Origin: Blastomussa wellsi
Taxonomy: Eukaryota; Cnidaria; Anthozoa; Scleractinia; Plerogyridae
Assembly: GCA_947652115.1 (NCBI GenBank)
Contig: OX393561.1
Span: 2,414,919 to 2,478,918, forward strand
Direction of reading: 5' to 3'
Length of the DNA: 64,000 nt
Shown piece by piece: positions 3,602 through 63,484 of the stretch. Made by a program: the position numbers and the translations under genes. The notes below the pieces were generated by a model. It was not told the origin of the DNA and did not search any database. It saw only the letters and a list, made by a program, of their open reading frames with translations. How positions within the stretch are numbered: position 1 is the stretch's first letter; each line of letters starts with the position of its first letter.

Positions 3602-3659
3602 CTTGTAACCCAACGAAGATGAAACACTGGATGGAACGTTGCTGGCGATCGATTTTGGT

Positions 3660-10187: not shown

Positions 10188-10245
10188 CTTGTAACCCAAC
10201 GAAGATGAAACACTGGATGGAACGTTGCTGGCGATCGATTTTGGT

Positions 10246-16756: not shown

Positions 16757-17427
16757 GAGATTCAAGAGCTGACGGTTCAAGCGTTAGCTCTTCGTCGGAG
16801 CTCCGACGAAGGGAAACGTCAGCTCTTGAATCCCTTTACGGTGGCCAATTCACATTATCAACCCATTACATAAAACCTAATTATATTGTTATACTTCCTA
16901 CGGACGCAGCACCGCAGTTTCTTTAGAAACTTACCCCCTCTATCCACTAAATTTAAAATTTGTTTGCCTTTAAGGCGGCTTGCTTCCAAAGAAATACCAC
17001 GGACGAGTACTATCCATCTAGGTATTTTCCTCGAACGGGCGGTTTGGGTTGTTCTTGTTATTGTCTCTCCGCTGATGAACACTATCGAGTCACGTGATCA
17101 ATCAGAATCAGAAGAAAATCAGAATTGGAGAAAATTTAGCAGTGAACAATAATTTAAAATATGTTTTACTTCTAACCGCTGACTAATGCATTATATCTTT
17201 TCAATTCAGAGTTTAAAGATAAGTATTGTATTAATTTTCTGGGTTTAAAAATCGATCAGTTCGTGCATCTACCACACACTAAGCCACTGAGATTTGTAAA
17301 CCTGTTAACTGCATTCTTTCTTGTACATGAAACCAGCAAAAACCTCTAACCGAAATTATTCATTTATCTCAACAGACAGAAGAGCAATTACTTACAAACT
17401 CAAACGAAAGTAGCCTGAGCTTCTGAG

Positions 17428-21872: not shown

Positions 21873-22173
21873 TTGAGTTTGAGTTCCTGGCGTACGCATC
21901 TAAATTCTTTATTATTTTTTCAATGAGTCGTCGAAATTAAAAAAAAAAACTTCAGTCTAGCTTAAACTCATTTTTGCAGAACTTTGAGTCCCTCGGTGAT
22001 TTACATTTTCAATTTCGGCACGGGGCGCCATTTGAAATCACTTTATCTACTTCAGTTTTAGATGCAAAATAACCTTAATTTTTTAAACCACACTTTTGTG
22101 GCCATCTTTTAGGCGGACTGGCGTTTGGAATCCATTAGAGAGAAGGTCACCACACTTGGAATACTTAAGGCCA

Positions 22174-23145
22174 ATGGCCACTATCACTGGAGACCACATT
22201 ATTAACACCAGCTACTTCGAGATCATGGCCCATCTACCTGCATCAAACTGCATTCCATGGCTTGTTGTACTGATCTCTGAATGTCTAGCAATAGTCATCC
22301 TTAATGTTATCACGATTATTGTATTTATGAAGCAGCGCCAGCTACAGCGCCGGAGTACATACTTACTCATCCACCTGGCTATAGCCGACCTGTTAGTTGG
22401 AGCGGTCTCAGGACCTCTGAACCTAGCAGAGACAATGGAAAGTCCGTGCGGCCTGTGGAGTTACCCGCTTGATGTACTATCAATACCTCTATTCAACAAT
22501 CCAGTTGTATTGTTATTTTATTTAGTTTCCATTGTGAATCTCGCAGTTATCTCTTTGGAGCGGTTGCATGCTACGTTTTTCCCATTCAAGCATCGTCTCA
22601 TAAAGAAATGGGTTTATGGTGTAATAATTGGTGTCATGTGGCTTTTCTCGATATTGGTTGAATCCGTCCCATTTATACTACACGAATCGATGAAAGACAC
22701 TGATATAAAGTTGGTGTCACTCTATTATACCATTCGTTCTTCGTTATGCTTATTAGTTCTGGTTGTAATTTGTACTTCTTATATTCTTGTATATATCAAG
22801 GTTCGATTTGGACCTCAACTCCAGCATCACGGTGCAGCTAACAGAGAAAAGCAACTTACAGTGACCTTGCTTGTTGTCACACTTGTTTCGTTAATAACCT
22901 GGTTGCCGAGTGTGGCCTTATACATTCTTGCGTACAGTGAAAGCTTCTTGGAAGTTTCCCTGCAATCGAGTCTTTACCTTTCATTTTCTTTCAGTTTGTT
23001 GACTTTGGCTAACTCTTTAGTTAATCCTATTATGTATGCCATACGGATGGCAGAATTCAGGGCAATCGTTGCTCGACTCTTCCGAAAACCTTCAGGGAAT
23101 AGAGAAGATCGACGTGTTATTCCGTTGAACATAAGAAATCTGTAA
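22174..23145 (+). CDS. Diverged class A GPCR between units A and B
   Basis: A 323-residue seven-transmembrane receptor. I chose ATG 22174 (MATITGDHI) because the open frame upstream (from 22096) has no ATG and lies beyond a likely splice acceptor near 22111. It is clearly related to the clustered receptors: NCIPWLVV at the start of TM1, HLAIAD in TM2, SLERLHATFFPFKHR at the end of TM3, WLP in TM6, and NSLVNPIMYAIRM in TM7 with a longer basic C-terminus (KPSGNREDRR). Its N-terminus carries an extra 30 or so residues with a potential N-glycosylation site (NTS). ECL1 contains CGLW, likely the TM3 disulphide cysteine. The ligand is unknown. Its flanks are not shared with the duplicated units, so it is an older paralogue. 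Confidence 0.92.
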   Translation: MATITGDHIINTSYFEIMAHLPASNCIPWLVVLISECLAIVILNVITIIVFMKQRQLQRRSTYLLIHLAIADLLVGAVSGPLNLAETMESPCGLWSYPLDVLSIPLFNNPVVLLFYLVSIVNLAVISLERLHATFFPFKHRLIKKWVYGVIIGVMWLFSILVESVPFILHESMKDTDIKLVSLYYTIRSSLCLLVLVVICTSYILVYIKVRFGPQLQHHGAANREKQLTVTLLVVTLVSLITWLPSVALYILAYSESFLEVSLQSSLYLSFSFSLLTLANSLVNPIMYAIRMAEFRAIVARLFRKPSGNREDRRVIPLNIRNL

Positions 23146-31437: not shown

Positions 31438-31976
31438 GTTATACTTCCTACGGACGCAGCACCGCAGTTTCTTTAGAAACTTACCCCCTCTATCCACTAA
31501 ATTTAAAATTTGTTTGCCTTTAAGGCGGCTTGTTTCCAAAGAAATACCACGGACGAGTACTATCCATCTAGATATTTTCCTCGAACGGGCGGTTTGGGTT
31601 GTTCTTGTTATTGTTTCTCCGCTGATGAACACTATCGAGTCACGTGATCAATCAGAATCAGAAGAAAATCAGAATTGGAGAAAATTTAGCGGTGAACAAT
31701 AATTTAAAATATGTTTTACTTCTAACCGCTGACTAATGCATTATATGTTTTCAATTCAGAGTTTAAAGATAAGTATTGTATTAATTTTCTGGGTTTAAAA
31801 ATCGATCAGTTCGTGCGTCTACACACACTAAGCCACTGAGATTTGTAAACCTGTTAACTGCATTATTTCTTGTACATGAAACCAGCAAAAACCTCTAACC
31901 GACATTATTCATTTATCTCAACAGACAGAAGAGCAATTACTTACAAACTCAAACGAAAGTAGCCTGAGCTTCTGAG

Positions 31977-32852
31977 ATGTTTTCGTTACCGGAGTGTATT
32001 CCCTGGCTTGTAGTGGGATTGGCTGAATCTGTTGCTATAGTTACACTTAACGTTATAACACTAATTGTTTTTATAAAAAACCGCAATCTCCGCAAGCGTA
32101 GTATGTACTTGGTTATAAATTTGGCAGTTGCAGATATGCTGTCGGGAGTATTTACTACGACTTCTTCCATCTATGGTTTAGGAATATGGTGTAATTTATG
32201 GGAGGAACAAATATATCAAAACTCGGCGACTTTAATTGCTATCCTTTTTATACTGATTCATTTGTTTCCTCTTTCCTCTGTCGCAAATATCGCTACAATT
32301 TCTGTGGAACGGCTTCACGCGACGTTTTGGCCTTTCAAACATCGCGTTCTTGGAAAATGGTTTTACGGGTTATTAATTTCCATTGTTTGGATTTCAGCTT
32401 TCTTGGTAGCATTCGCTTCATATTATAGCTATGATGATTATTATTATTATTATTGGCAGCTCTTTATTTCATTCTGTTCAATTTGTCTATTTATTATTTG
32501 TGTTTCTTACGCGTGCATTGTTATTAAAGTCCGTTGTGGAGCGCAGCCTCAACACCATGGTGCAGCCATTAGAGAAGGAAAACTAACCATGACATTGTTG
32601 ATCGTCACTGTCGTATCTCTACTGTTGTACTTGCCATATACAATCTATTCTTCTATGATTATCAATGGAGTCAAAATTTCAATGTCTGTTTCAGTTAGTT
32701 TCCATTTAGCAAGAGCAATGATAATTTTATTTTTCGCAAACTCTCTTGTAAACCCTATATTATACGTTTCCCGCATGCCAGAATACAGATCAGCTGTACT
32801 TGCATTATTTCGCAGACGACGTCAGCAAGGGTTTCTTCCTCGTGACATTTAA
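31977..32852 (+). CDS. Rhodopsin-family (class A) GPCR, unit B
   Basis: Intact 291-residue paralogue of the receptor at 17428, with the same start (MFSLPECIPW), NLAVAD, SVERLHATFWP, LLYLPY and NSLVNPILY motifs and the same C-terminus. Changes cluster outside the membrane: TM2-TM3 loop FTTTSSIYGLG; start of TM3 region SATLIAILFILIH with an added residue; loop after TM4 YDDYYYYYWQ with extra tyrosines from a TAT repeat. The intracellular third loop has AIREGK where the others have S-R-E-R-K, losing one basic residue. Ligand unknown. Confidence 0.93.
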   Translation: MFSLPECIPWLVVGLAESVAIVTLNVITLIVFIKNRNLRKRSMYLVINLAVADMLSGVFTTTSSIYGLGIWCNLWEEQIYQNSATLIAILFILIHLFPLSSVANIATISVERLHATFWPFKHRVLGKWFYGLLISIVWISAFLVAFASYYSYDDYYYYYWQLFISFCSICLFIICVSYACIVIKVRCGAQPQHHGAAIREGKLTMTLLIVTVVSLLLYLPYTIYSSMIINGVKISMSVSVSFHLARAMIILFFANSLVNPILYVSRMPEYRSAVLALFRRRRQQGFLPRDI

Positions 32853-34770: not shown

Positions 34771-35611
34771 CCAGCCTGACCCCATGATGACGTTTGAGCT
34801 TAAACAGTTTAGACGAAAAAAATAGATGGAGTAAACAGACATTAGTTGGGGATGAAGCACTCCCCCTGTCCGATAGACTCACATGGTCAGCTCTCTTAGT
34901 ATTGAATGGGTCCCCGGACGAAAGCCTTGTGTTAACATGATCTACTACCGCATCAACTCTGGTCTCCTTCGGAAACTACATTAGCTCAGAATATAAGCGA
35001 AAAATCTCATCGACTCTCGTGGAAACTTGATAGGGGTTTAATACCCTGGTCAAACGCAGAGCTTTACATTAGTCAAGCCTTGTGTCTGTCACTCAGCAAA
35101 AGCTGTTGGTTTTGCTCAGTCTACAACGGGTGCGGGCGACTCGTGTGAAGTTCAACGTTTGACCCGCGCTCTAAGCATACTAAGTGTTATAAAACATCAT
35201 GCATTGATTGTGTCATTTGCTTTATCGTATATATTTAAAGATTCAATTAAACACTTGCTGAAACTACAAATTGCTTTTTTTGGTCAATTATTAAAAAATA
35301 GAAAAACTGGCCTGCGCGGTAAGTTGTGCTGCTCAATTTTTCATTCAACGGCGTTTTTCTCAAAATATAGCCTGCGTAGCTGGCGGGAATTGCGACGAAG
35401 TGTTGTTGTTTTTGCGGGCAGATCCGCACGTCGTTTTGAGCGGCAAAGTGGCGAGGAGTCGAGTCAGAAATTCACACTCGCGCGCGCGTGTCCGTTTCGT
35501 AAACGGTCGATGCCATTTTTGTCGACACTTGGCTATAATCGAATTTTTTTCCGACAAAACAGAAAGAAAAATTGTTTGTAAATGACCAGAATCGAACCCT
35601 GAACCTCTGAC

Positions 35612-36007
35612 ATGCCAATAGTTACACTTAACGTTATAACACTAATTGTTTTTATAAAAAACCGCAATCTCCGCAAGCGTAGTATGTACTTGGTTATAAA
35701 TTTGGCAGTTGCAGATATGCTGTCGGGAGTATCTAGTACAACTGATTCTTTCTATGATTTAGGAATATGGTGTAATTTATGGGAGGAACAAATATATCAA
35801 AACTCGGCGACTTTTGGTATCATTTTTACACTGATCCGTTTGTTTCCTCTTTCTTCTGTCGCAAATATCGCTACAATTTCTGTGGAACGGCTTCACGCGA
35901 CGTTTTGGCCTTTCAAACATCGCGTTCTTGGAAAATGGTTTTACGGGTTATTAATTTCCATTGTTTGGATTTCAGCTTTCTTGGTAGCATTCGCTTCATA
36001 TTATAGC

Positions 36008-36062
<55 letters not shown>

Positions 36063-36358
36063 GGCAGCTCTTTATTTCATTCTGTTCAATTTGTCTATTT
36101 ATTATTTGTGTTTCTTACGCGTGCATTGTTATTCGTTGTGGAGCGCAGCCTCAACACCATGGTGCAGCCAGTAGAGAAAGAAAACTAACCATGACATTGT
36201 TGATCGTCACTGTCGTATCTCTACTGTTGTACTTGCCATATATAATCTATTCTTTCATGATTATCAATGGAGTCAAAATTTCAATGTCTGTTTCAGTTAG
36301 TTTCCATTTAGTACTAATGTTTAGATCATCCCCGCTTCAGGTGATTGTTTGCTGTTAA
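35612..36358 (+). pseudogene. Chimeric, truncated GPCR fragment
   Basis: The frame encodes a receptor like its neighbours from within TM1 (IVTLNVITLI) to just before TM7, then ends in unrelated residues (VLMFRSSPLQVIVCC). The first 20 residues of the normal protein and all of TM7 with NPxxY are missing. The left junction, at about 35618, joins sequence homologous to 48388 of unit C. The right junction, at about 36312, joins the inter-unit block. Compared with the intact genes it lacks two codons (KV) before RCGAQPQHHG. A run of about 20 tyrosines, encoded by a perfect TAT/ATT repeat (36008-36062), sits in the second extracellular loop. A functional receptor is unlikely. Confidence 0.8.
36008..36062 (+). 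repeat. (TAT)n microsatellite coding poly-tyrosine
   Basis: Pure trinucleotide repeat of about 18 units within the receptor fragment. The corresponding sites have far fewer units in unit B (near 32433-32455) and are interrupted in units A and C. Confidence 0.95.
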
Positions 36359-44186: not shown

Positions 44187-44720
44187 GTTATACTTCCCAC
44201 GGACGCAGCACCGCAGTTTCTTTAGAAACTTACCCCCTCTATCCACTAAATTTAAAATTTGTTTGCCTGTAGGGCGGCTTGTTTCCAAAGAAATACCACG
44301 GACGAGTACTATCCATCTAGGTATTTTCCTCGAACGGGCCGTTTGGGTTGTTATTGTCTCTCCTCTGATGAACACTATCGAGTCACGTGATCAATCAGAA
44401 TCACAAGAAAATCAGAGTTGGAGAAAATTTAGCGGTGAACAATAATTTAAAATATGTTTTACTTCTAACCGCTGACTAATGCATTATATGTTTTCAATTC
44501 AGAGTTTAAAGATAAGTATTGTATTAATTTTCTGGGTTTAAAAATCGATCAGTTCGTACGTCTACACACACTAAGCCACTGAGATTTGTAAACCTGTTAA
44601 CTGCATTCTTTCTTGTACATGAAACCAGCAAAAAACCTCGAACCGAAATTATTCATTTATCTCAACAGACAGAAGAGCAATTACTTACAAACTCAAACGA
44701 AAGTAGCCTGAGCTTCTGAG

Positions 44721-45587
44721 ATGTTTTCGTTACCGGAGTGTATTCCCTGGCTTGTAGTAGCATTGGCTGAATCTGTTGCTATAGTTACACTTAACGTTAT
44801 AACACTAATTGTTTTTATAAAAAACCGCAATCTCCGCAAGCGTAGTATGTACTTGGTTATAAATTTGGCAGTTGCAGATATGCTGTCGGGAGTATCTAGT
44901 ACAACTGATTTTTTCTATAGTTCAGGAATATGGTGTAATTTATGGGAGAAACAAGTATATCAAAACTCGGCGACTTTTGGTATCCTTTTTACACTGATCG
45001 TTTTGTTTCCTCTTTCCTCTGTCGCAAATATCGCTACAATTTCTGTGGAACGGCTTCACGCGACGTTTTGGCCTTTCAAACATCGCGTCCTTGGAAAATG
45101 GTTTTACGGGTTATTAGTTTCCATTGTTTGGATATCAGCTTTCTTGATAGCATTCGCTTTATATTATAGCTATGATGATTATTATCATGGGCAGATCTTC
45201 ATTTCATTCTGTTCAATTTGTCTATTTATTATTTGTGTTTCTTACGCGTGCATTGTTATTAAAGTCCGTTGTGGAGCGCAGCCTCAACACCATGGTGCAG
45301 ACAGTAGAGAAAGAAAACTGACCACGACATTGTTGATCGTCACTGTCGTATCTCTACTGTTGTACCTGCCATATATAATCTATTCTTTAATGATTATCAA
45401 TGGAGTCAAAATTTCAATGTCTGTTTCAGTTAGTTTCCATTTAGTAAGAGCAATATCAATTTTATTTTTCGCAAACTCTCTTGTAAACCCTATATTATAC
45501 GTTTCCCGCATGCCAGAATACAGATCAGCTGTACTTGCATTATTTCGCAGACGACGTCAGCAAGGTTTTCTTCCTCGTGACATTTAA
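44721..45587 (+). CDS. Rhodopsin-family (class A) GPCR, unit C
   Basis: Intact 288-residue paralogue of the receptors at 17428 and 31977, with the same seven-segment layout and motifs (NLAVAD, SVERLHATFWP, LLYLPY, NSLVNPILY). Distinguishing residues lie mainly in predicted outer segments: the TM2-TM3 loop reads SSTTDFFYSSG, the following helix start has WEKQVYQN, and the loop after TM4 has YDDYYHGQ with no tyrosine run. The third inner loop is DSRERKLTTT. Ligand unknown. Confidence 0.93.
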   Translation: MFSLPECIPWLVVALAESVAIVTLNVITLIVFIKNRNLRKRSMYLVINLAVADMLSGVSSTTDFFYSSGIWCNLWEKQVYQNSATFGILFTLIVLFPLSSVANIATISVERLHATFWPFKHRVLGKWFYGLLVSIVWISAFLIAFALYYSYDDYYHGQIFISFCSICLFIICVSYACIVIKVRCGAQPQHHGADSRERKLTTTLLIVTVVSLLLYLPYIIYSLMIINGVKISMSVSVSFHLVRAISILFFANSLVNPILYVSRMPEYRSAVLALFRRRRQQGFLPRDI

Positions 45588-50084: not shown

Positions 50085-50723
50085 ATGGGAACAGCATGCT
50101 CTAAAGGTGCTGCCGAGGTTGTAACGACCGATGCTAACAGGATCAATTCGCTACACAATCACAATTTCGTTTTTAAGGACACGGACGTGGATCATCGCGG
50201 AGAACCTTCTCACCCTGCGCAATCTCAAAACGATCAAACAGAGAAAAATCCTCCACTGGAAACGTCGGATATGTCAAATCTTAAAACCGAGGCTTGTTCA
50301 CACGAAGAGGGTACAGCAGATGTAACAGAAGATCAAATTTCACAAGCACAAGATGTCGATGACCAGTCAACCGTGCTACTAAATTCATTCTGCGAAAAAA
50401 ATCCGAAACTTCAATCAGATTTGAGGGCAAAGCGAGATCATTACCAGGCTTTGAAAGAAGCCTTAGAGAGTGGTAAACTGGCGACACAGGCCGCATTGGA
50501 CAATGTGACAGGATTGTTCAATCTTTACACCAAGAATGGGAAGCCGGCGAAAAAAGTGTTAACTGATTTTGCTGTAGCTTTGGGGATTCCAAAGCTTGCC
50601 TACGACATAGTCGTTGACCGCCGAGCTAACTGCCATGAGGTGACTACCTGGGATAGGGAAGAAGAGAATGAACAACCAACTGAGGGGAATGCGACTGAGA
50701 CATCAACGAAAGCTGAGAATCAG
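50085..50723 (+). CDS. ARM-TIR-SAM gene, exon 1
   Basis: 213 codons from the first ATG to a donor CAG|gtaggt (phase 0). The N-terminus MGTACSKG fits the Gly2 myristoylation signal with a nearby cysteine for palmitoylation, suggesting membrane attachment; this is inference. The middle is acidic and disordered. Residues about 105-185 (FCEKNPKLQSDLRAKRDHYQ onward) look helical, of unknown family. Without splicing the frame would stop at 50763-50765. Confidence 0.8.
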
Positions 50724-53700
50724 GTAGGTGACTGCTGTAGTGCGTCATGTCGAGAGATAGCTTGACAAAGTTTGATAGAAAATCGCCCCTTCGAATTTGT
50801 CTTCTGGGACTTCTTGGTCTGTTTTAAATAAAGTGGGATCGAGGAACTTGTCATATTTTTTTCTTCCTTTGTCGCTTAACATCACAAAAGCTGTGCCGTT
50901 TAATAGAAGCGCCCGGAGACAAGGAAGACAAAAATAATCCCAGTTTCAACTTAGTGATAACAATAGTCACGCAAATAATTTTCTTTTTCTCTTTCATAAA
51001 AGTTAGAAATAGCTCAATTTACAATGTTAAATCCAACTGCGAAGTCGAAACATCGTTGACTCTTCCACCGCTCAGTGCATACAGTAACAAGAGCCTGCAC
51101 TAATAAAGACAGCAGTTTCATCTTATACTTGATGTAGTGTCAACAAAACGTCTTCACAGTCTTACTCCTTCATGCATTTCTCTTTCTTTGTGACGACTGG
51201 CTTTTGGTTTAAATTACATAGGACCATACCATAGAACCATGCTGAATTACTCACCGTCAAACGAACGAAAAAATTTCTTGTTACTTTTCTCCCTCCAGTA
51301 TCATACCATATCATATCATATCTTATTAAAAACTAGCTACTGTATATTGCATTTCCTGAGTTTTGAATGGTTGAGAGGCAATGGTATATGAGCTCGTATA
51401 CCCAAAAGGTAGGTGTACGCGTAAAATAATGCATTTTTGCAATGTTTGTACAATATTTTCGGGGCGTTTTTAATAAAACAATTACTCCACTCGCGCGTGT
51501 TGGATATGAGATGGTTATAGCCAACTCGGCGCTAAGCGCCTCGTTGGCTATCTACCATCTCATATCCGACGTGCGCGAGTGGAATAATTGTTAAATATCA
51601 TATTGTAATGTTTATCCTTTCTTTTATATTCCCTTCTTAATATAGCGTCCCCAATTAGCGTCATTATAAAGCTAGAAGTATTTGACACTTAAATCATATA
51701 CCTATTCATATCATATTATGGGTGGATATTGTCCGCAATATCTTAAGAATGGTATATAACACTCCAAGAATACAAATACCAGTAGGAATACCAATAGGGT
51801 CTTTTTCTATTGCAGAATATTATGCCATTTTTCAAAACTTTTCCCTCTTCATATGTGGAATATTGAAACAAAGAAAAAAAAATCGAAAAAGGGCCCAGTC
51901 ACAAACCATTGAGAAAGGACGACTGGGTTTTCAGTCAAGCTTATTCCTTCAATTCACTTACGTAAGTCATTACAATGAACGAATTCGGGACAATACCCGG
52001 TCCTGTACTTAAAAAGTATTGGCCCTACCTGCAATGGAGCAATCTGATAGTCGTTGCATTTGGTCCTCTGATTACCATCAGTCGTGAAATAAAATGTGAT
52101 GTGATATGATACTATAAGATACGATATAATCTTATACATCATACAAAGGTTTTTAGAAATATAAGATCATCTATTGGAATCCATTGGAGTTTGTTGAAGG
52201 TGTCGACTGGGTTATCCCTCAGATGGAAAGATTATTCTTCCACAGAGCTTCTGAATTATAAGGACCTCAGCAAAGGCCCTCAAAAATTTATCAGTGCATT
52301 AACAAACTTCTGTTGTAGTAAGTGAGGTGGCCAGCACTTTCTCTAAGAGCTATTCTTGAGAATTCAACATGCATGTGCTAGTAGCTACAGAGACACATGG
52401 AGACACTTTTCAAGCCAAAGTCACACAATGCATTGACATCAACAAAATACCAGTCTAGGAACAACCAAGTCAAGATCCATCGCCAGAAATACGCGACATC
52501 CGCCATTTTGGAAATCGGTCAGCGGTTGTACCCTTGAGCGCACGTTGTCTCATTCAAGATGGCGGACCATCGCTCCTCGAAGCGAGTGGGTCGTTCAGTT
52601 GGATTCTACAAGGATCTCGAGACTTTAGAATTGCCAAAAGCCAGACGAGTGCGAGGAGAAGTGAATGTTCTACCACGGCGCTATAACGTGGAAAGGATCA
52701 TTTCCCGCAGAGTGGTCGCAGGGGTACGTAAAATTATCCCTTTCTCGATGTTTTGAAATTATAGTCAAGTATCAGCCGGCTACGAATCCTCCACTGCACT
52801 GCAGCTCTATTTTTATCAAGAAACTTGGTATTTTATTTTGAATTTTCGTGCCAAAATGGTATAAACCGCTGACCCTCCCGCCAAATCGACGAGCCATCGA
52901 GGGCTCAGTATAAGATGCCGAAAACAGGTCCCTTTCGGGACCATTTTTGGTGATAAGGGAGCATCAAAGGGACATTTTTCATATGGAGTTCAAAGAAAAG
53001 GCCTTAAGGCGTTCCAATGGAAGTTCCCTCGAGCTGGTTCTCCAATTCTAAGTCAAGTTATGGCCGCGGAAAGATGACGAATTTTTCGTACTTTAGCGAA
53101 CAATATGGCGGAATTTCATGGAAGAAATACACCAATGTTATTTCTCATCTCAAAAGTAAAGGTCGATTTATTCTGTGGGCGAAATTCATGGATTTTAGAG
53201 GTATGTATAAGCCTTCCCGAACGTGGGATCACTTGAAACTAAGTTGTGTATGTACGATTTCAATGACTTCTGGCGAGTTAGAAACTATTTCCAACCAATT
53301 CGAGTACAAAAAAATACAGTAATTGTATGGACTTGACGCGATTATGTCGGTGTACGAATTCAATTCAAAAAAGTAAAGGCCAAAATATTCGTAGCAATCC
53401 AAATATTTACCGGAGTTTGTCAGTGAAAGGTTAAATTTTTTAGTACCGCTTGAAACTAAGTACCTTGATTTTTAAAACGCGAGAAATATTTAGATTTGCG
53501 TTTTTAGCCCATACATTCTCTATATTCCATCAAAGCCACTAGAATAACCTGAGCCTCTAATTTCGAATTCAAAATGGCGGCCATGTCGCGTATTTCTGGC
53601 GATGCTCAAGTTCCACATGGGTTTTGTTGCATTTTATTTGAGCTGGCTTTCTGGCTGGTTTCATTTAAAACTGCTACACCGTGCTGACGAGTTCCAATAA

Positions 53701-56700
53701 GAACGAAACAGCTGTCCACGGTTGCAGCCTTGCTTTATCGGTTTCTGTCGGGTTGTTGTCTCGCAAAGTCAATTTTTTCACGTAGTATCAGCCTTGCAGT
53801 TATGTTTGTGTTACAGTTTATTTTTGGCTGATTAGGTCTCTTGCAGATCCTATCCTATCCTCCTATCCTACTCCTTTTCGGTAAACATAAGTCAATGCGT
53901 AAATGAGTCATGTTTCATGAGTCATGAGTTAAGTTATGAGTCAGGGTCAGCGGTTTTCAAAATTCAAAATGGCGGACATCGCAAAACTCGGCAACCTCGT
54001 CCCCAGGGCCACCCGCGCGGTGCTCACGACGAATGGCCTCGTTTTCAAATTTTGTTCGAGGTGGGGCATGGGACCCATTTCTTGCTACAAAGGGCGTTTC
54101 TTGTCGCTGCAATGTGATAGTTTGCAAAAATTGGGAAGAGTTGAGAGCTGTAAAAGTTTTCCCCAGAGTTTTGCCAACTGGTTCCCTCGTTATCAATATC
54201 TCAGTTAACACGCTTTCAAAGCGCAGTTACAAAGGCTGAATTGTGTTAGCTCGCACACTAAGCTTACGTCATTTGCGGGGGAATTTGCGCGCGTGTGTGG
54301 ATTTAACGAATTTTTTTAACTGTTTTTCTTCAATAGTCTGAGTGCAAAGACCATATAAATCAACCCTGAAATCGTCTTTTCACTACTAACAATTTTGAGT
54401 GCCAAAAAACCAAGGGAGTTTTAGATGCTCCAGGAGTTTTGTGATTTTATTTTTCACTTTGCGTGAGCTGACGCGTGATGTGACCTTGACCGCAGTCGAC
54501 ATCGTCAGATTGTCGTCATGGCTGCGCCATACTTTCGAAACGTGCGCCAATCAAATGCAAGATTATATTCGACATGTAAATAAACCAATCGTGTCGCTCG
54601 ATAAAACAGCCTGCACCAGGGCCATTCGTCGTGAGCACCACGCGGGTGGCTCTGGGGACGAGGTTGAAAACTCGGTAAACATGAGCCAATGTCAAACAAA
54701 ACCGCTGACCTGACTCATAACTTGACTCATGACTCATTGATTCATTGACTCATAAAACAGGAATCCGCACGTCCGAGAAAGATGTTAGCTGTGTGAGGTC
54801 TTAACGTTTCTGTGTTCTGGTCACGTGACGTTCCAACCATGGTCACAATTGCCTAAAGTGAAAGCAGCCTACAATAGGAACAAGCATGGCAATAAAACTA
54901 AATCCAGAATTGAAAGGAAACCCAAGATATGAGGGGCGGATCTAGGGGGAGGGTGCTGGGGGTGCCCCTCCCTGAGATGACCTGCGACTCTCTAACAGAA
55001 CGAGCATTCTGCGTACGTCACCTATTAGTTACGTCATTCTTTAGAGGTTCACTCCCTCCGGAGAAAAATCCTGGATCCTCCCCTGAGATATGATGGTTAG
55101 AAGTCTTACATAGCAATCGTTTTGTAGTTAGGCGTCTCCCCCCTCAAACCTGATTTGTAAATAAAATTATCTTAAATTACTGCTTAGCCGCCTGCTGTGG
55201 TGCCTTTGAATTAATGAAAGTACCTAGCTATACACTTATAACACAATTAAAATCTACCTTTAACCAGAGTATTTTATATTTATAAGTAATTCATTTTCCG
55301 AGTGCTGTGGGTCGTAGCCACTTTGGTTGATGAGTTGTCTTACATGAAGCGTGGAATCGTTGTAGCCTCCGTAGCCATTGAGAGCGCTGAGGCTCCGATA
55401 ATTCCACACTTCGTGTAACACAACTAAATCTGTCAATGATTAGAAACGTCCCTCAGGGTCATCCCTTTTGGCCATGACCTCTTTGATCTTCCCTTTCGTG
55501 CAATCATCTCTTCACACCAACCCAATTCACGCATTAGCTGGCTGAAAGAGCCTTTCATTTTTTTCTAGGAGTCAAAAGAAGATGACGAGATGATAAGTGC
55601 ATTAAAAATGTTACAGGATGTGATCTGTCTGCTTTTTGGAGCACTTCTGAATTATTGTGATCTCCATGATCAGTTCTGTTTGGCGTGCAATGAAGCTGGA
55701 ATGGTCCAACTTTTTGTTGAGATCGTTAAAGAACTCCAAGATTCAATTCCACACAATGTAAAACATGAGGTAAGTAAAAGATAACTATTTTGTATTAGGT
55801 AAACTGAACGCAAACGATGTATATAACAAACGATGTATAAATATACGATGTATATTTAGCTTTGGTATAATTTCGGTGGAGATTACATGGAATCGGACGC
55901 GAATTCCGATTGGTCGAGAAACTCGGCTTAGGACATTATAACACCCCGCCAGAGGTGATTATAGCATTTCAAGGCTTGGTCGCTAAGCTAGGCCTTCCTT
56001 GTTCAATATAATTTGGTTTTATCAACTGGGTTGATAATGTGAATTGGCCACCGTAAAGAGATTCAAGAGCTGACGTTTCGAGCGTTTGGATTCGCTCCGA
56101 CGAAGGGCCAACGCTCGAAACGTCAGCTCTTGAATGTCTTTACGGTGGCCAATTCACATTATCAACCCAGTTGATAAAACCAAATTATATTGTTATACTT
56201 CCCACCGACGCAGCACCACAGTTTCTTTGGAAACTTACCCCCTCTCTTCCTGTTCAAGTCAAGCAATTATCGCTTTTTCCGAGGACATCAATTTAACTCT
56301 GTTCCCCTTTATGTCCATACCCCTCGACTTCGTCTCGGGGGAAATTCGCCGAATAATTGTTTAAATTGTCTATAACAACTTTATTGGCATGATAAAAAAT
56401 TATTTACTGCCTCGAAACAATAGATCAGCACTATAAATTCTGAGAAATGACTATTAGATTTGTTTTATTTCACGAAAGTTCCATTCATGGGAATCAGAGC
56501 CACGTTTCTTTTTTTGTGTGTGAAAAATTCAAGGCGGCTCTGAACCTTCTTAAAATTTGTAAAAAAGCCGTAGATATATTGTTTATTTGGCAATATATAA
56601 AAATAGATTACCTTATGGTTATAACTACAACCTATCGCAATAAAAGCATTCCTAAGGCATACCCGTTTTGTATTGTAATCAACAGGATCCTCAGACGAAA

Positions 56701-57448
56701 GCCTTAACGAAATTCACAGTGCGTGGCAAAATGCTGTCTAGGGGTCTGGGAATTCTTCATAACTTGTCGAGAAGGGGAGCGACAAGGACAAACTTTGCCG
56801 CTTGTCAGGCAGTAAATACAGTACTTATACCAATCTTTAAAGTTGAAACCACATTTTACAGTGCTAAGAGCCTGCTCGTTTTGGCCAACTTGATTGATGA
56901 AGAGAACAATCACTTGATCATGGCAGATGAAGGTAAAACCCTTTAATTTGTTGCATTAAAATGATTCACAAATAGAGATCGATTTGCCGAATAGAAAATT
57001 CCGTTTAGTCAATGACGTCATCACTCCCCTAATGTGCACATTTCCCCCATTTTTAAAAATCTAGGAACACCTAGGTTGCGTACCGTGTCACTGCAAGGAA
57101 AGTGTTCAGGTTGTAATATGTAACATGAAAATGTTATTTCAGGTCCAATCAAATTTCTCATGCGCTTACTGAGAAAGGCCATAGGAATCTCCCACCACAG
57201 ATATTTGGGTTTTGCTGCTAGAGAACTTGCGGAAGGTCTGACGAAAGTTGCGGTCAATGATAACAACAAGAAAACGGTAATACAGTTGTCTACTTTCACT
57301 TCATTTTAATGTTCGCAGCCAAAAAGTGTTATAAAAATTTGTTTTTTCTACTGGCCATGTAACACAAGGTAACTTTTCTTGCAACTGACAATACTACATA
57401 CGCTGCATTGATTACCAGATGCCACAACACATTTCATGTAGAGCAAAC

Positions 57449-57517
<69 letters not shown>

Positions 57518-60500
57518 ACCGTTTTTCAATCTGCAGTGGAAAACTGTGTTGCATTGCGAGTTGAAATAAAGGTAGAAGCAGGATTCCCATGTAGTTTGAC
57601 GGAAACCCGGAAAAATCAGAAACATTGCCATTGCCACATAAATAAAACGAAGAGGCGGAAGCCACTAATGAATTAACGGGAACTGGGAGTAAAAAGAAAG
57701 GGAAGCGGGAGATGCAGATTCTATGTCTCCCACCCCGCCAACCCACACCCCCACCTTCCCCTTCCCAGAGGAGGTGTTGCAACACCTTTTATTTATTTCA
57801 CGAAGAGTGTTTATTAGGCAACATGATATTGAAGTAACCCAGTCCAATTTTAACCTGCAGTATGTGCTCCTATTGTCTCATTCGTGTTATAAGTTGCCTT
57901 ACACCATCGCATTGCTAATTATTTTGTGTATTTTCTATTTAGATTGTTAAGTGTGGAGCTATTCCAATTCTAGTCAAAATGCTGCAAAATGCTAAAGACG
58001 ACCAAGAGAAAATTAACGCATGCAACCTATTGTGGACATTGGCTTTTGATGAAGATAATAGAAAAGAAATCAAGAACGATGAATCCGTTATTCCCGAGCT
58101 AAAGAAACTTGTTACTTCAGATAATAGCGAGATAAAAAGAGCTGCTGCAGGTGCATTATGGGAATGCGAAGGCAAAGAGAAATACGCGGAGGAGAAACAA
58201 CAATCAGTTGAAGTACAGCAGGCAGGTGCGCATGTGCACAGTTTATGGGCCTTTACTTGACAGTTTCGAACTGGGCAAGTATCCTTCAAACTCTTTGAAC
58301 ATGAAAACAACAACACGACCTTGGACATCCTTAAAATGATAACCTAGTACTTGAAAGTTCCACAAATTTGTTTTCATTTATCATCCTATATCTATCTAAC
58401 GTATGATACAAAGTTTAAATCATTTTAAGACTCTGGCATTTCCATATGGTTTATGAGTTTTTATATGATGGTAATATAGGATTAAGTGGGCCCCGTTTAG
58501 TCCATTTACAAATCATTTATTTGATCACCCGAGCGCGTATCTGGTGTCCAATTTCTTTGTTCGGACCGAGTTTCCGTTACTAGTCAATCATAGCTATTAA
58601 AAAATCAATAAACTTTTCAATGAATGAAAGTCAAAAAATTATTTTTAATCAAAATTTGGGTCGCCGGAATCTCACCAAAAAGTCCTTGTATATTAGTTTG
58701 GTCAAAAAACTCGCCAAGAGAATTAAAGCTTGCATACGTTTTTCTGTTCTTTGTCTGTTCGAAACATCATCTCTTAATACAGTCGGCGCTCTTTGATTTT
58801 AAAGAAAACTCTCCTTGAAAATGGTTACCCGATAGGCGTAGTTTGTTATACATTTTTCTGTTTGTTCGTTTCAGACACGAAGCACGTGATGATCAGCTAC
58901 CAATGGGATGTACAAAGACTCGTGATTCAGTTGAAAAACAAGCTGCAGGCAGACGGCTTCAAGGCCGGTCTGGATGGACATTGATGAGATGGGCGGCTCT
59001 ACATTGGAGAGCATGGCCAAGGCTGTGGAGAATGCAAGCGTCGTTTTGGTCTGTGTGTCTCAGAAATACAAAGAGAGTCCCAACTGTCGATCAGGTAAGA
59101 ATACCTACAGTGCTATTATGTGAAGAAGCGCGCGTTATGTAGTGTGCTTGCCACTCGCGATCGTGTTTTGCGTTTTGCGTTGTCAGTAAATCACCGGTTC
59201 TGCAGGATAGCCAAAGATATGTCATCATATAACTTGCACTTTGAATGGTTGTGAGGTCGTTACCGCTATGAAATGTTTTCCATTTTCATGGCTATGTTTT
59301 ACAAAGAAAAAAGATGGCTGCTTTCTTAATAGGGAAATGACGAATTTTGGGAGAATTTCAAGTGCTAATACCTTCAGCACGGGTTTACATAAATTTTAGA
59401 TTTCTTCCAAGCGTTTTTAAAAAAATTTGTAACAGGCTCTGTGAGCACGCGCGTCGCCTTCCATTTTTTCAAAAGCCTTTAACTTTTCGATATCCTTCTC
59501 TTAAAGGTCTTTTTGATGTAACGTTTACGCTGTTAACAAAAAGCCAGTTAGATTGAATTTATGTTTTATTATTGTACTAATTTAGAGGCAGAGTACACTT
59601 ACCAGCTGCATAAAGACGTGATTCCACTAATGATGGACAGTAAGTACAGGCCTGACGGATGGCTTGGCTTTATAGTGGGTTCCAAATTCTGGATTGACTT
59701 CAGTGAAAAACATAAACTGGACTCGAACGCGGAAAAGCTCGTAAAGGAACTGGGGAACAGAGGGAAAATCACAGCTCAGGAAACTACTGTTCAAGGTTTG
59801 AGAATTAGGCCACAAAGAAGGTTTTTGTGCGGAACTGGAATTTACCACAATTTCCTTTCGCGCCAAAACTGGCTGCGTTCCTTTCAATTGGAAGAACTCG
59901 TATGAAGCTGAAGATTTTGTAGACTCGAGGTAATGCTGTTCCAAGTCAAATTGCGACTTCTTCTGTTTTGTTGAATTGCAGCAGCAGGTGTAGATGTTTT
60001 TGACGCTTCGCCCCAGTCCTCCATTAGATCATGGACACACGGTGACGCTAAAAAGTGGATCAAGGAAGCGGGATTTGGAGACAGGTCAGTGGCTGAATTC
60101 AAAGGGGGCAGAGCACGATCTCTCTGTGTGCACCCGTAACCATAATTATAATTACACAGGGACTTTCGATTCCAAAAACGTCACACAAGAAACTAGATAT
60201 TGCTTACGCAATGAGCTAAAATTAGCTGCGATTAGTCTATTGTTTCTAGAGGCAACCATTAACCATTAGAATATAGCCCTGTATGCCTGGTACTCCGGAT
60301 GTAGTTTATGTCACGTTGCGAATTGAAAAAAAATGGCGGCGACAATCTTTTAAAGTTGTCTTTTTATTTCCTTTATTATGGCTGCTAAAACAACTATTAT
60401 CGAAACAAGTTCAGGTGACTGGGGAGACGAAAATGTGGACGAGCTATTGAGCAGCGAGTGCCAGAAATACGAACAAGGAGGCCGCCCGCGCGCGTAAATT

Positions 60501-63484
60501 CGGTTAACTTTTTAGGATTTTTTAATGCTATATTCTAAACCAGCTAGAAGATGGGTTTCCCCAATGTCCTATAACAAAATAATTAATGCCCTTTTGAGGT
60601 CTAGAAAAGCAGCTGAATGGCCTCGGCTAACGGCTCGGACATCCACTAGCAACTTTTCTAGACCTCAAGCGGGCATTATTTTCTTATAGAACATGAATAC
60701 CCATCTTCTAGAAGGAAAATATACCTCTTCAGCTTCGTTTGTTTGTTGTCACATTTCAGATCACGTGATGGTACCCTTGAGAATTATTTCTTTCAAATTC
60801 AAAGTCCCAGTCTCCAGTAGTTCCTGGAGCTAGCTAATTAGCACGTGACATCACATCTCAGCGGGTGCGCACTGCGAAATTGAACGTTTATAGAACGGTT
60901 TATTTTGATGTAATATATCAAACACGAGAAACAGTGTTTCATCAAATTTCAAAACACCGAGAAGAGAGTTGAAAATACGACGCGCAGCGGAGTATTTTTG
61001 ACGAACTTCGAGGTGTTTGGAAACGTGATGAAACACTGTCTCGAGTGTTTGATATATCTTCTCAATCGAAACAAAAACTACGGAAAAAACGAAGAAATAA
61101 AATCATAAAAATCTATGCTAATTAAGATACATTTCCACTATGATTTCCTTTGTTTTAACGTGATGAATTATTAATGAGTTTGAGAAGGAATGTTCCAACT
61201 TATTTGTCTTTTTTTAACATACTGTATTTTCTCGATTAAACGCTGAACCCCGAATAATCCCCGGTTTGATCGAGGTCCCGTCTTTTATAAGAGGCCCGGA
61301 ATTTCAATTTGGTATTACACAACTGAATCGCATTCAAAAATAGGTATATTCATTTAGTTTCACAGGCGAACACGCTCTAACATTTCAATTTTCGGTTTTT
61401 CTCCCACCCATCCAACAAACAAGGGTGTCAACAGGATTTACCCGTTATGCGAAAACTGGAGCCCACTAGTCAAATGTCAAAAAAATGTCAAATGAATGAT
61501 TATAGTGGTCATGCACTTAGCTACATCAAGCTAATTCTCAGACATGCCACTCAAACAGAGGGAAACAAATATTTCAAATAAACATAACAAGCTTGAAAAT
61601 CCCAACTGGCGGGAGGCGAACCAGTTGGCTATATACAAGCATGACCGAGGAGTTGAACTAGGGTTCACCAAGAAACAACTCCAGCTAAGTGGTCAGAGCG
61701 GGACTTGAACCCGTGACCTCCGGATTTCAAGTCCGGCGCCCTAACCACTCGGCCACGCTGCCTAGATGATGGACTAGTGATGGGCTCCTGGCCAAAAATT
61801 GCTTAAAATTTAACCTTTAGCAGTAAAACAAATTGACAACCGTTAACCGCAAAAAAATATTAGCGCAAATTAAAGGTCTCAATTGTCCTGTAAAGAAATC
61901 CATTTGCAATTTTTTAATTATTTTTTAACAGTTTTTTTTATTATTTTAATTTAAACAATGTTTTTTTTTTAATTTTTTAAACAACTTAAAAAAAAATTAT
62001 TACCATTACCATTACCAAAGCCATTCAGAGCTTTTCATCGGGCGCAAACGAAGGTGAAAAGGAAGACAGAGTTGTGCCAGTAACTCTCCCCTTCAAAGAC
62101 CAAACATCAGCCAACGCGGTTAAAAGGCAAATGCGTGATCTCAGTCACAAGACTGGCACTACACTTCAACCCGTGTTTATTAGCAGAAAATTGGAACAAG
62201 ATCTCAAGCACAAAGAAATCAAGCCCCAAATCGTAAATCAACAATGCCTTGTTTATTCTTTTTTATATAATAACAAAATCAATGCGGGCGCTCTGATTGA
62301 TCAATCAGCTATGGTTTATTGGTTTATCTGAATTATTATATAAAAGCAATAGACCACGCTTTCTATGGGTTTATAGGAGTAACAACCCACTTGGGATGTT
62401 TGGTAGAACACTCGAAAAGTTTGTAAAGTTTGTAAGTTAGTATTTAAACATTTTTATCGGTACTCTTTCTGACTTGATAATGACGTGAGCTAAACGTCGA
62501 AACGTCGTCTTGATAAACACTTTTTTTAATATGCTTTTACGAAATGTTTTATCGCAATTTTTTTTATCGTCAGATATTTTTTTTTTTACATTAAAAATTA
62601 AAATAATTGTCTACGCCCCCAGTACAGGACTGGTATGTATTTGTGGACCAGATAAATTTCATTTTTTGTTTACCGATATCCGAGAAATGTAAAACAATGG
62701 TAATTAATTTTTAAAATTTTAGTTAACCGTAACGGAAAAAAATCAACCGCTAGCCTTGAAAAGGCCATTGAAAATTTAACCGTTAGGCGTAAAAAATGCT
62801 TAAAATTAAATCGTTAGCCGTAAACGCCACTACCCTATTGAGACCCTCACAAACTACCAACTAAGTTTGTGGTATTTTGGTTTTCTTCTCTTGAACTTCT
62901 TTTGTTAAATTTTGCCTTAGATTCAATAATTTTTATGCAAAATCAGTAAAAAGCGAGGCTTTCAAAAATAATGCAAAAATATCCTTGCTCAATGCTGAAA
63001 CGCCGGGCCCCGAATGAAGGCCGGGCTCAAACAAACGCCGGGCCCCGAATGAAGGCCGGGCTCAAACAAACGCCGGGCCGAAAAAGCCGAGTTTTAATAA
63101 ACGCCGGGGGCATCTAATCGAGAAATTACGGTATGCTAATTGCGACATTCAAATTTCCAAACAAACTTCGTCACCGTCAATTTATCGAAAATAAATTGCT
63201 CCAAAATATCATTTTTTTTTTAATTTGAGCTCGAGTTATTTGCGGATAATATTTTTTGGGCAATATTATTTTGCTCTTACCTTTCACAAGAGGAATTAGA
63301 TGTTCGTTCAAACTGTGTGGATCGCAGCTGTGTTTACAGTGCACATATAGTGTGATGAAAAAACTTTCCTAGTTGAGTAAATTTCATTTCAAATAATCGA
63401 AACAATTTTTACAGGCTGGACCCAAAGGCTGTACAAAGATTGGATGGTCCGATGTTGCTGCGATTGCAAGATCTCAGGAAGGAG
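50085..63484 (+). CDS. ARM-TIR-SAM multidomain gene (9 exons in window, 3' end not reached)
   Basis: Coding exons: 50085-50723, 55569-55769, 56686-56932, 57143-57276, 57943-58225, 58875-59094, 59586-59795, 59982-60084 and 63415-63484, all with AG/GT borders. Every phase agrees across junctions except inside exon 6. Predicted layout: MGTACSK start (myristoylation/palmitoylation type), about 200 residues without a known domain, about 290 residues of armadillo-like helices (exons 2-5), a TIR domain (exons 6-7) and a SAM-like segment (exons 8-9). TIR proteins act in innate immune signalling or, in SARM1 and its relatives, cleave NAD. A likely catalytic glutamate is in NCRSEAEY. SARM1 has the order ARM-SAM-SAM-TIR; here TIR precedes SAM. 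Exon 6 has one extra base (near 58967), which ends the frame within the TIR domain, so this allele may be a pseudogene. The gene probably continues past 64000. Confidence 0.8.
51323..51594. mobile_element. 272-bp foldback element, copy 2 (intron 1)
   Basis: Same family as 43511-43793: TTATTAAAAACTAGC start, AATAATTGTTAA end, and a hairpin from cactcgcgcgtgttggatat to its complement. The remainder of intron 1 between 50724 and 52477 is AT-rich and without a supported gene. Confidence 0.72.
52478..53604. mobile_element. 1.1-kb TIR element in intron 1
   Basis: The left end CATCGCCAGAAATACGCGAC continues to ccgccattttg (52511). The right end is its inverse, caaaatggcggcc then gtcgcgtatttctggcgatg (53570-53604), with a small indel. 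Between them lies a possible short coding exon at 52559. Confidence 0.75.
52559..52732 (+). CDS. Possible short coding exon inside the TIR element
   Basis: ATG in a strong context (caagATGGCGG) opens a basic peptide (MADHRSSKRVGRS) that reaches RRYNVERIISRRVVAG, reminiscent of the first strand of a chromodomain. A gtacgt donor follows near 52724-52733. No second exon was recognised. It may be a remnant of the element's own gene or chance. Confidence 0.3.
53901..54757. mobile_element. 0.85-kb element with long inverted repeats in intron 1
   Basis: The left arm runs from tgagtcatg through aagttatgagtcagggtcag to ctcacgacgaatggcc (54037). The right arm is its inverse, from gggccattcgtcgtgagcac (54619) to tgactcataacttgactcat (about 54730). 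The arms are about 130 bp with small indels. No coding capacity. 54760-55330 after it holds repeat-like G-rich sequence (ggatctagggggagggtgct) and no gene. Confidence 0.75.
55334..55424. repeat. Short foldback in intron 1
   Basis: gttgtcttacatgaagcgtg and the near inverse cacttcgtgtaacacaac bracket about 45 bp. Confidence 0.65.
55569..55769 (+). CDS. ARM-TIR-SAM gene, exon 2
   Basis: 67 codons, acceptor ttttttctag, donor GAG|gtaagt, phase 0 at both ends. Encodes helical sequence (LKMLQDVICLLFGALLNYC, then AGMVQLFVEIVKEL) typical of the first armadillo-like repeat. Confidence 0.82.
56005..56191. repeat. Foldback hairpin in intron 2, same family as the retrotransposon target
   Basis: AATATAATTTGG to CCAAATTATATT, sharing ttatcaactgggttgataat and the ccaccgtaaagagattcaag arm with the hairpins of units A-C. 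It is followed by the same downstream sequence (tgttatacttcccaccgacg) as in the units. It is the only copy outside the duplicated array and has no retrotransposon. Confidence 0.85.
56686..56932 (+). CDS. ARM-TIR-SAM gene, exon 3
   Basis: 247 nt, acceptor tgtaatcaacag, donor GAAG|gtaaaa, phase 0 to 1. Encodes two armadillo-type helical repeats (LSRGLGILHNLSRRG, AKSLLVLANLIDEENNHLI). Confidence 0.85.
57143..57276 (+). CDS. ARM-TIR-SAM gene, exon 4
   Basis: 134 nt, acceptor ttatttcag, donor ACG|gtaata, phase 1 to 0. Continues the helical repeats (GPIKFLMRLLRKA, RYLGFAARELAEGLTKVAV). Confidence 0.85.
57450..57516. repeat. (ATT)n microsatellite in intron 4
   Basis: About 22 uninterrupted units. 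The minus-strand poly-Asn and poly-Ile frames through it are artefacts. Confidence 0.95.
57943..58225 (+). CDS. ARM-TIR-SAM gene, exon 5
   Basis: 283 nt, acceptor ttctatttag, donor GGCAG|gtgcgc, phase 0 to 1. Contains the clearest armadillo signature: CGAIPILVKMLQNA, KINACNLLWTLAFDEDNRK, VIPELKKLVTSDNSEIKRAA, AGALWECEGKEKY. Ends in a short linker to the TIR domain. Confidence 0.88.
58875..59094 (+). CDS. ARM-TIR-SAM gene, exon 6 (first half of TIR, frameshifted)
   Basis: Acceptor gttcgtttcag, donor TCAG|gtaaga. It begins in phase with TKHVMISYQWDVQRL (TIR box 1). After GFKA the frame meets a stop (TGA at 58982), while the +1 frame gives the expected box 2 and helix (WMDIDEMGGSTLESM, VVLVCVSQKYKESPNCRS). 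The 220-nt length is one base more than the phases of the neighbouring exons require. The extra G is probably one of 58967-58968. Confidence 0.82.
59586..59795 (+). CDS. ARM-TIR-SAM gene, exon 7 (second half of TIR)
   Basis: 210 nt, acceptor ctaatttag, donor CAAG|gtttga, phase 1 at both ends. Encodes the TIR C-terminal half (AEYTYQLHKDVIPLMM, YRPDGWLGFIVGSKFW). The glutamate codon that is probably catalytic is split by the intron 6 junction. Confidence 0.83.
59982..60084 (+). CDS. ARM-TIR-SAM gene, exon 8 (SAM-like start)
   Basis: 103 nt, acceptor gttgaattgcag, donor ACAG|gtcagt, phase 1 to 2. SWTHGDAKKWIKEAGFGD fits the first helix of a SAM domain. Acceptor choice is uncertain because CAG repeats there offer alternatives three bases apart. 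Confidence 0.65.
60378..60497 (+). pseudogene. Short open frame after an aaaATGGCGGC-type leader in intron 8
   Basis: A 39-codon frame (MAAKTTIIETSSGDWGDENV onward, ending in an Arg/Pro-rich stretch). Its composition is protein-like, so it may be a first-exon remnant of a transposon gene. No family recognised. Confidence 0.25.
60543..60712. repeat. Foldback element in intron 8 (a)
   Basis: ctagaagatgggt plus cctataacaaaataatt and cttttgaggtctagaaaag are matched by inverted counterparts up to cccatcttctag. Confidence 0.7.
60911..61060. repeat. Foldback element in intron 8 (b)
   Basis: atatatcaaacacgagaaac and agtgtttcatca pair with gatgaaacactgtctcgagt and gtttgatatat. Confidence 0.72.
61485..61762 (-). 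mobile_element. tRNA-derived SINE
   Basis: On the minus strand from 61762 the head reads as a serine-type tRNA with anticodon TGA, A box TGGCCGAGTGG and B box GGTTCAAGTCC. It continues without a break into a non-tRNA body (ggagttgtttcttggtgaac, then agccaactggttcgcctccc). The head lacks the long variable arm of a real serine tRNA and its acceptor has two mismatches. Similar SINEs occur in many cnidarians. Confidence 0.75.
62032..62331 (+). pseudogene. Penelope-like element polyprotein fragment (probable)
   Basis: The open frame contains VTLPFKDQTSANAVKRQM, LQPVFISRKL and KPQIVNQQCLVYSF, resembling the segment before the GIY-YIG endonuclease of Penelope-like retroelement proteins. Both the reverse transcriptase core and the endonuclease itself are missing. 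Identification rests on family memory, so it is tentative. Confidence 0.4.
63415..63484 (+). CDS. ARM-TIR-SAM gene, exon 9 (SAM-like end)
   Basis: 70 nt, acceptor atttttacag, donor GGAG|gtatac, phase 2 to 0. LDPKAVQRLDGPMLLRLQDL fits the second half of a SAM domain and joins exon 8 in phase. The frame is also open without splicing to a stop at 63671, so this could instead be a terminal exon. 63674-64000 shows no further exon that I can support. Confidence 0.6.

What the first reader, a model, noticed from the sequence alone, without database searches (positions are those of the whole stretch)
50085..63484. ARM-TIR-SAM gene: SARM1-like parts in a different order, with a membrane-anchor-type N-terminus
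Seen: nine phase-compatible exons encoding MGTACSK, about 290 residues of armadillo-like helices, a TIR domain with NCRSEAEY and a SAM-like segment. Known: SARM1 is ARM-SAM-SAM-TIR, where ARM inhibits and SAM oligomerises an NAD-cleaving TIR. Inference: a cnidarian family in which the oligomerising module follows the TIR, and in which N-myristoylation could place the sensor at a membrane. This is the best candidate for an undescribed immune or cell-death architecture here.
Basis: partly seen in the sequence, partly recalled or inferred. Interest (0 to 1): 0.75.

Follow-up and report, generated by a model that had tools for sequence, protein, structure and literature searches.

The report
Ancient membrane-anchor-type ARM-TIR-SAM gene, frameshifted copy
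A coral gene joins a helical-repeat sensor-like part, an enzyme-type immune TIR domain and a protein-assembling SAM-like end in an order unlike the known cell-death enzyme SARM1; relatives occur from corals to molluscs, lancelets and a fish, but this particular copy carries a frameshift inside the TIR domain.

Summary
The gene's nearest relative found is an Oculina patagonica protein (80% over 727 columns). It has ten exons; the tenth lies just past the window. The order ARM-TIR-SAM-like and the MGxxxS start are conserved.

Corrections. (1) Exon 6 has a four-base insertion against an intact tandem paralog about 3 kb downstream, so this allele would stop near residue 537, before the TIR glutamate. 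Assembly error, null allele and young pseudogene cannot be separated here. (2) The family also occurs in amphioxus, molluscs, gar, sea urchin and a rotifer. (3) The window gene's own tail matches no Pfam SAM model; 14 of 21 family tails match SAM_1 weakly or better.

Best explanation: a lipid-anchored, ARM-regulated TIR enzyme oligomerised by its C-terminal SAM-like domain, working like SARM1 but not a SARM1. The glutamate aligned with those of Cat1, RPS4 and TIR-1 is retained in the family; activity and lipidation are untested. TIR exons of two paralogs were apparently homogenised (dS 0.14) while ARM and tail exons diverged (0.9-1.0).

Print knows pieces: TIR-SAM (amphioxus), ARM-TIR (molluscs), SARM-like and tandem TIR genes (corals). 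My ten searches found no paper describing this order with the anchor.

The parts
50085..50723 (+). Exon 1: MGTACSK start, about 90 residues of likely disorder (judged from the ortholog's model), then helices
   Evidence: P0002 residues 1-213, 68%; residues 1-92 under pLDDT 50 in the P0002 model
55569..55769 (+). Exon 2: ARM region
56686..56932 (+). Exon 3: ARM region
57143..57276 (+). Exon 4: ARM region
57943..58225 (+). Exon 5: ARM region with the best Pfam Arm match
58875..59094 (+). Exon 6: first half of the TIR domain, interrupted by a frameshift
   Evidence: two overlapping frames match P0002 502-537 and 528-575
58963..58968 (+). Place of the four-base insertion relative to the intact tandem paralog (exact place ambiguous by a few bases)
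   Evidence: alignment; copy 2 exon 6
59586..59795 (+). Exon 7: second half of the TIR domain; the codon of the glutamate in NCRSE spans the exon 6/7 junction
59982..60084 (+). Exon 8: linker and first part of the SAM-like domain
63415..63484 (+). Exon 9: middle of the SAM-like domain; exon 10 follows outside the window at 64276-64377 (contig C1:2479194-2479295)

Best explanation
The locus is a member of an old animal family of mostly about 630-750-residue proteins: N-terminal glycine-serine lipidation-type signal, armadillo repeats, an enzyme-type TIR domain and a C-terminal SAM-like domain. Most likely mechanism: the N-terminus tethers the protein to a membrane; the ARM solenoid holds the TIR off until it meets a ligand or partner; the SAM-like domain assembles copies so that their TIR domains pair and cleave NAD+, giving cell death or a nucleotide signal. 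Shown: architecture, conservation, retained glutamate in the family, purifying selection between two copies. Inferred: lipidation, autoinhibition, oligomerisation, NADase activity, immune role. The copy in this window as assembled is frameshifted in the TIR exon and cannot make the whole TIR; the neighbouring paralog can.
For: Kinship and spread. Domains: TIR_2 in 48 of 48 and Arm in 40 of 48 of a set across phyla, E up to 0.1. Tails of 15 proteins of the first search and 19 of the second are homologous by hhalign (99.8%, 1.8e-28). SAM kinship: the tail profile finds liprin, ETV6, SARM1 SAM (1.8e-6) and Shank in PDB. AlphaFold model of P0004: mean pLDDT 83.7, ARM about 50-396, TIR 400-524, five-helix C-terminal domain about 555-627. 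The TIR profile's nearest solved TIR is Cat1 (1.8e-7); RPS4 and TIR-1 follow at 0.0013, and the family glutamate aligns with a glutamate in all three. At that place of a motif pattern all 126 and 47 matches have E; the stricter motif is present in 119 of 120 and 42 of 49 proteins. MGxxxS: 103 of 120 and 13 of 49. Copy 1 against copy 2: dN/dS 0.10-0.32.
Against: No biochemistry or expression data. The window copy is frameshifted. The TIR profile matches SEFIR proteins (0.0012-0.0023) as well as TIR-1, and chains named SARM1 alone only at 0.005 or worse, so a non-catalytic scaffold is not excluded. SAM evidence is weak protein by protein: SAM_1 in 13 of 40 and SAM_2 in 25 of 40 coral-type proteins, 9 and 8 of 48 across phyla, all at E up to 0.1; for four tails of this genome none reaches the Pfam cut-off and the window tail has no match; most profile matches end at or before position 48 of 78. 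16 of 120 and 32 of 49 members do not begin with MG (some are partial models).
Confidence: 0.5

Rival explanations
1. A scaffold or adaptor: the TIR binds other TIR proteins (TLR, IL-1R-like, MyD88 of corals) and the SAM-like domain other SAM proteins, at the membrane, without enzyme activity.
For: Many animal TIR adaptors work so (established knowledge); SEFIR-type proteins match the TIR profile at E 0.0012-0.0023, about as well as TIR-1.
Against: The glutamate is kept in 119 of 120 and 42 of 49 proteins by the strict motif, and the nearest solved TIR is Cat1 (that Cat1 cleaves NAD+ is recalled).
Confidence: 0.3
2. The window copy is a pseudogene or null allele and has no full product of its own; only its paralogs matter.
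For: A four-base insertion shifts the frame in exon 6; the 40 relatives of alignment A2 read through that place.
Against: The other exons and splice sites are intact; dN/dS 0.17-0.18 in ARM and tail exons. An assembly error or a polymorphism is equally possible; other haplotypes could not be searched.
Confidence: 0.45
3. It is simply the coral's SARM1.
For: Same three domain kinds; a source names an amphioxus member 'NAD(+) hydrolase SARM1'; SARM1 and TIR-1 chains are among the first rows of one Foldseek list (E 2e-6 to 1e-5, TM-score about 0.2).
Against: TIR is C-terminal in SARM1, internal here; one SAM-like domain, not two; the ARM part matches designed ARM proteins, Vac8 and others first and SARM1 is not among the 60 rows shown of 111; the TIR profile is no closer to SARM1 than to plant or bacterial TIRs.
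Confidence: 0.06
4. A chance assembly of unrelated exons or a gene-model artefact.
For: The frame is broken and no transcript was available.
Against: Exon order and sequence follow full-length proteins of other corals and an intact neighbouring paralog.
Confidence: 0.01

Closest known systems
SARM1 / C. elegans TIR-1 (NAD+ hydrolase)
   Same: ARM, SAM-type and TIR domains; glutamate aligned with one in TIR-1; SAM-like tail profile finds SARM1 SAM
   Different: Order ARM-TIR-SAM, one SAM-like domain, lipidation-type N-terminus, several tandem copies; TIR only distantly related
ARM-TIR proteins of oyster and Aplysia (PMC4346834, PMC9334734; passages seen)
   Same: ARM plus TIR; molluscan relatives found here carry the same kind of tail
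   Different: The passages I saw mention no C-terminal SAM-like domain or N-terminal signal for them; whether they are the same genes was not checked
TIR-SAM hybrid gene of amphioxus with transcript support (PMC2575513; passages seen)
   Same: TIR with SAM; amphioxus relatives found here
   Different: No ARM named for it in the passages; same gene or not was not checked
Coral 'SARM-like' proteins and tandem TIR orthogroup OG0000106 (PMC10236652; passages seen), and novel TIR genes of sea anemones (PMC5094078; section 11 and passages seen)
   Same: Coral and anemone TIR genes, tandem duplication, SAM named in a figure legend; may include this family
   Different: Order and N-terminal signal not described in what I read; supplements not read
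Vac8 (yeast ARM protein)
   Same: Best natural match of the ARM part in PDB (3.9e-16); also N-terminally lipidated (recalled)
   Different: No TIR or SAM (recalled)
Group 18 TIR domains (PMC7075850; passages seen)
   Same: A TIR class of Cnidaria, molluscs, echinoderms, lancelets and bony fish with mixed architectures; similar phyletic spread
   Different: Membership not tested

Membership tests
SARM1 | Domain order ARM-SAM-SAM-TIR with C-terminal TIR | tested here: not met
   Order ARM-TIR-SAM-like in the gene and its relatives
SARM1 | Two tandem SAM domains | tested here: not met
   One SAM-like domain of about 75 residues ends the protein
SARM1 | Catalytic glutamate in the TIR | tested here: met
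   Met for the family: aligned with a glutamate of TIR-1. In the window copy it lies behind the frameshift
SARM1 | NMN/NAD+-binding pocket in ARM | not tested
   No SARM1 ARM alignment obtained
TIR NADases | NAD+ cleavage | not testable with these tools
   Needs an enzyme assay
TIR domain (Pfam TIR_2) | Score over curated cut-off | tested here: met
   82.6 bits against 28, with X at the frameshift
ARM repeats (Pfam Arm) | Score over curated cut-off | tested here: met
   46.4 bits against 20.6
SAM domain (Pfam SAM_1/SAM_2) | Window gene's tail scores over curated cut-off | tested here: not met
   No match for exons 8-9 or for the complete tail
SAM domain (Pfam SAM_1/SAM_2) | Kinship of the family tail with SAM domains | tested here: met
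   SAM_1 in 14 of 21, best 1.5e-6; the rows under E 0.1 of the profile search are SAM-bearing proteins as far as their names and my knowledge tell; five helices in the model
N-myristoylated proteins | Glycine 2 with serine or a small residue at position 6 | tested here: met
   MGTACSK here; MGxxxS in 103 of 120 and 13 of 49 relatives; the consensus is recalled
N-myristoylated proteins | Lipid attached | not testable with these tools
   Needs a labelling experiment

The most novel reading that the evidence does not exclude
A second animal system of ARM-gated, SAM-assembled TIR enzymes, separate from SARM1 and older than the cnidarian-bilaterian split, anchored to membranes through N-myristate (in some members also palmitate), in which tandem copies diversify the ARM part while the TIR effector exons are kept alike by gene conversion: an immune receptor array with a shared executioner.
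Probability: 0.35. Interest if true: 0.8.

Novelty: new variant of a known kind. Interest (0 to 1): 0.55.

Why it matters
SARM1 is treated as the animal TIR NADase with ARM and SAM parts. A widespread second arrangement, with the assembling domain after the TIR and a membrane-anchor-type start, would give a natural test of which parts of the SARM1 design are needed, and would add a candidate sensor of infection or symbiont stress in corals. The members that bear a name in the listings are largely 'uncharacterized', 'hypothetical' or 'TIR domain-containing', and one is called 'myosin-7'.

Tried and rejected
Nine-exon reading in one frame: stops in exon 6. SAM test on exons 8-9 alone: no match; with the whole tail: no match; the family profile was needed. 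Alignment A3 led by P0123 was dropped because that protein lacks the start of the TIR. Copy 3 of the array could not be judged: 5,000 N lie where its TIR exons are expected. My first copy 2 splice ends were one base short in several exons (its dN/dS figures are not used) and were corrected. The NCBIfam scan gave one match at E 0.23, taken as chance. Whether the genome has its own SARM1 or another haplotype of exon 6 did not complete. Gerdol 2017 and Poole and Weis 2014 were seen only as cited by other papers. Passages of PMC7563517 gave nothing on this.

Full report
What is there. Reading 50085-63484 gives nine exons with AG/GT introns. The joined translation, with X at one point, matches Pfam Arm and TIR_2 above their cut-offs. 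The protein search on residues 214-702 found 749 proteins at E up to 0.001 among 7993 scored candidates, 120 of them listed; a Pocillopora model (P0001) ranks first, and Oculina patagonica P0002 and P0003 follow with 83% and 82% identity, the highest of the listed identities. In a tree of 33 proteins the window gene pairs with P0002 (100/100), 80% identity over 727 columns. So the animal is probably a stony coral near Oculina (inference), and the gene is real.

The broken frame. Exon 6 read in one frame ends soon after LQADGFK; the TIR continues in another frame. The paralog's exon 6 is 97% identical and lacks four bases at that spot. The first stop comes at about residue 537 (my count), with four exon junctions downstream, so decay of the message is likely (inference). 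The finding's 'phase-compatible' is therefore wrong for the sequence as given. Outside this spot the gene looks kept: dN/dS between copies 1 and 2 is 0.18 for ARM exons 2-5, 0.10 for each half of the TIR, 0.17 for the tail and 0.32 for exon 1. Error, polymorphism and young pseudogene remain open.

The missing end and the array. The own-genome search with P0002 (39 matches, a lower bound) placed exon 10 just past the window; it is 64276-64377 in window numbering and ends in a stop. Copy 2, C1:2482194-2493026, is an intact ten-exon, 736-residue gene. Copy 3 starts near C1:2500106; five exons before the TIR and the last exon were matched, and 5,000 N lie between. Intronless open relatives lie on C15 and C12 (686 and 678 residues from the methionine), and a diverged locus on C2 shows two ARM stretches, TIR exons and one tail.

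The C-terminal domain. But 21 family tails (20 from fetched proteins and one from L012) give SAM_1 in 14 and SAM_2 in 12 of 21 at E up to 1, best 1.5e-6, and a profile of them finds liprin, ETV6, SARM1 and Shank SAM domains; lower down, at E 0.19, it also lists an unrelated kinase. In full-length scans at E up to 0.1 SAM_2 is found in 25 of 40 and SAM_1 in 13 of 40, and in 8 and 9 of 48 across phyla. The window tail sits in this family (82% identity in the hhalign). The model of P0004 has five helices there, with ten-residue pLDDT means of 82-93. The second half carries a conserved ESPEFFY-type stretch beyond the reach of most SAM matches. I call it a divergent SAM domain.

Spread. A second protein search with an amphioxus member found 50 proteins, among them amphioxus, bivalve and gastropod molluscs, the gar Lepisosteus, the urchin Diadema and the rotifer Seison; several others have no named source. 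Many of their tails show the same pattern by eye; a simple tail pattern fits 117 of 120 and 26 of 49 proteins, and misses some clear cases by eye, while some of the 49 are truncated or have another tail. Tails of 15 proteins of the first search and 19 of the second (three of those unnamed) are homologous. The tree sets the anthozoan-type rows apart from the others with moderate support (90/98, the other side 83/50), in keeping with an origin before the cnidarian-bilaterian split. The Seison, Diadema and Nucella branches are long.

How it may work. The TIR of the family keeps a glutamate that aligns with one in Cat1, RPS4 and TIR-1; the strict motif is present in 119 of 120 and 42 of 49 proteins. 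The start MGxxxS fits the myristoylation consensus (recalled) in 103 of 120 and 13 of 49; the sets are redundant, with 18 and 11 different MGxxxS heptapeptides in them. MGTACSK and MGAGCSK also offer a cysteine. ARM as regulator, SAM as assembler and TIR as enzyme is inferred from SARM1. A scaffold role is the main rival.

A further result. Between copies 1 and 2, dS is 0.91 in ARM exons, 1.02 in the tail and 1.46 in exon 1, but 0.14 in both halves of the TIR. The closest relatives of copy 2 are in Desmophyllum and Orbicella (88-89% in ARM, against 72% to copy 1), so the duplication is old and the TIR exons were most likely homogenised by gene conversion; strong synonymous constraint is the alternative and was not tested. 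Across 13 coral-type proteins (one of unnamed source) TIR identity is 80-100% while ARM identity is 58-93%.

Literature. Ten searches (two searches found nothing). Amphioxus TIR-SAM (PMC2575513, passages); ARM-TIR class in oyster and Aplysia (PMC4346834 and PMC9334734, passages); TIR Group 18 (PMC7075850, passages); coral SARM-like proteins and a tandem TIR orthogroup (PMC10236652, passages); sea anemone TIR genes whose figure legend names SAM (PMC5094078, section 11 and passages). The last three may include this family. None of what I read describes ARM-TIR-SAM with a lipidation-type start; supplements and subscription papers were not read, so absence from print is not shown.

Verdict. A true member of an old, little-described family; broken in this assembly; a new variant of the SARM1-like kind, not a SARM1.

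Noticed in passing
58875-59094 and 59586-59795 against C1:2489519-2489734 and C1:2490588-2490797: TIR exons of two old paralogs are 96-97% identical with dS 0.14 while other exons have dS about 0.9-1.5: likely gene conversion.
   Followed up: partly
G000 C15:17523522 (L011) and C12:25637965 (L012): Open intronless ARM-TIR-SAM relatives that group with Porites lutea and two unnamed proteins in the tree, which suggests a retrocopied branch.
   Followed up: partly
G000 C2:24846825-24859425 (L043, L044): Diverged locus with two ARM stretches, TIR exons and one tail, perhaps like the 1,196-residue Oculina protein P0013.
   Followed up: no
3609-9610 and 10195-16196: Two almost identical retroelement-like units side by side, each with frames of 470, 895 and 662 residues (judged by eye).
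   Followed up: no
17419-18294, 22087-23145, 31968-32852, 35603-36358, 44712-45587: Five single-exon frames that look like rhodopsin-type receptors by eye (not scanned).
   Followed up: no
61691-61762 (-): tRNA-Ser (TGA) in intron 8; the stretch 61563-61763 has a 71% copy in copy 2's first intron, so it is probably a tRNA-derived repeat.
   Followed up: partly
53678-53722 (+): Type I hammerhead ribozyme above Rfam's cut-off inside intron 1.
   Followed up: no
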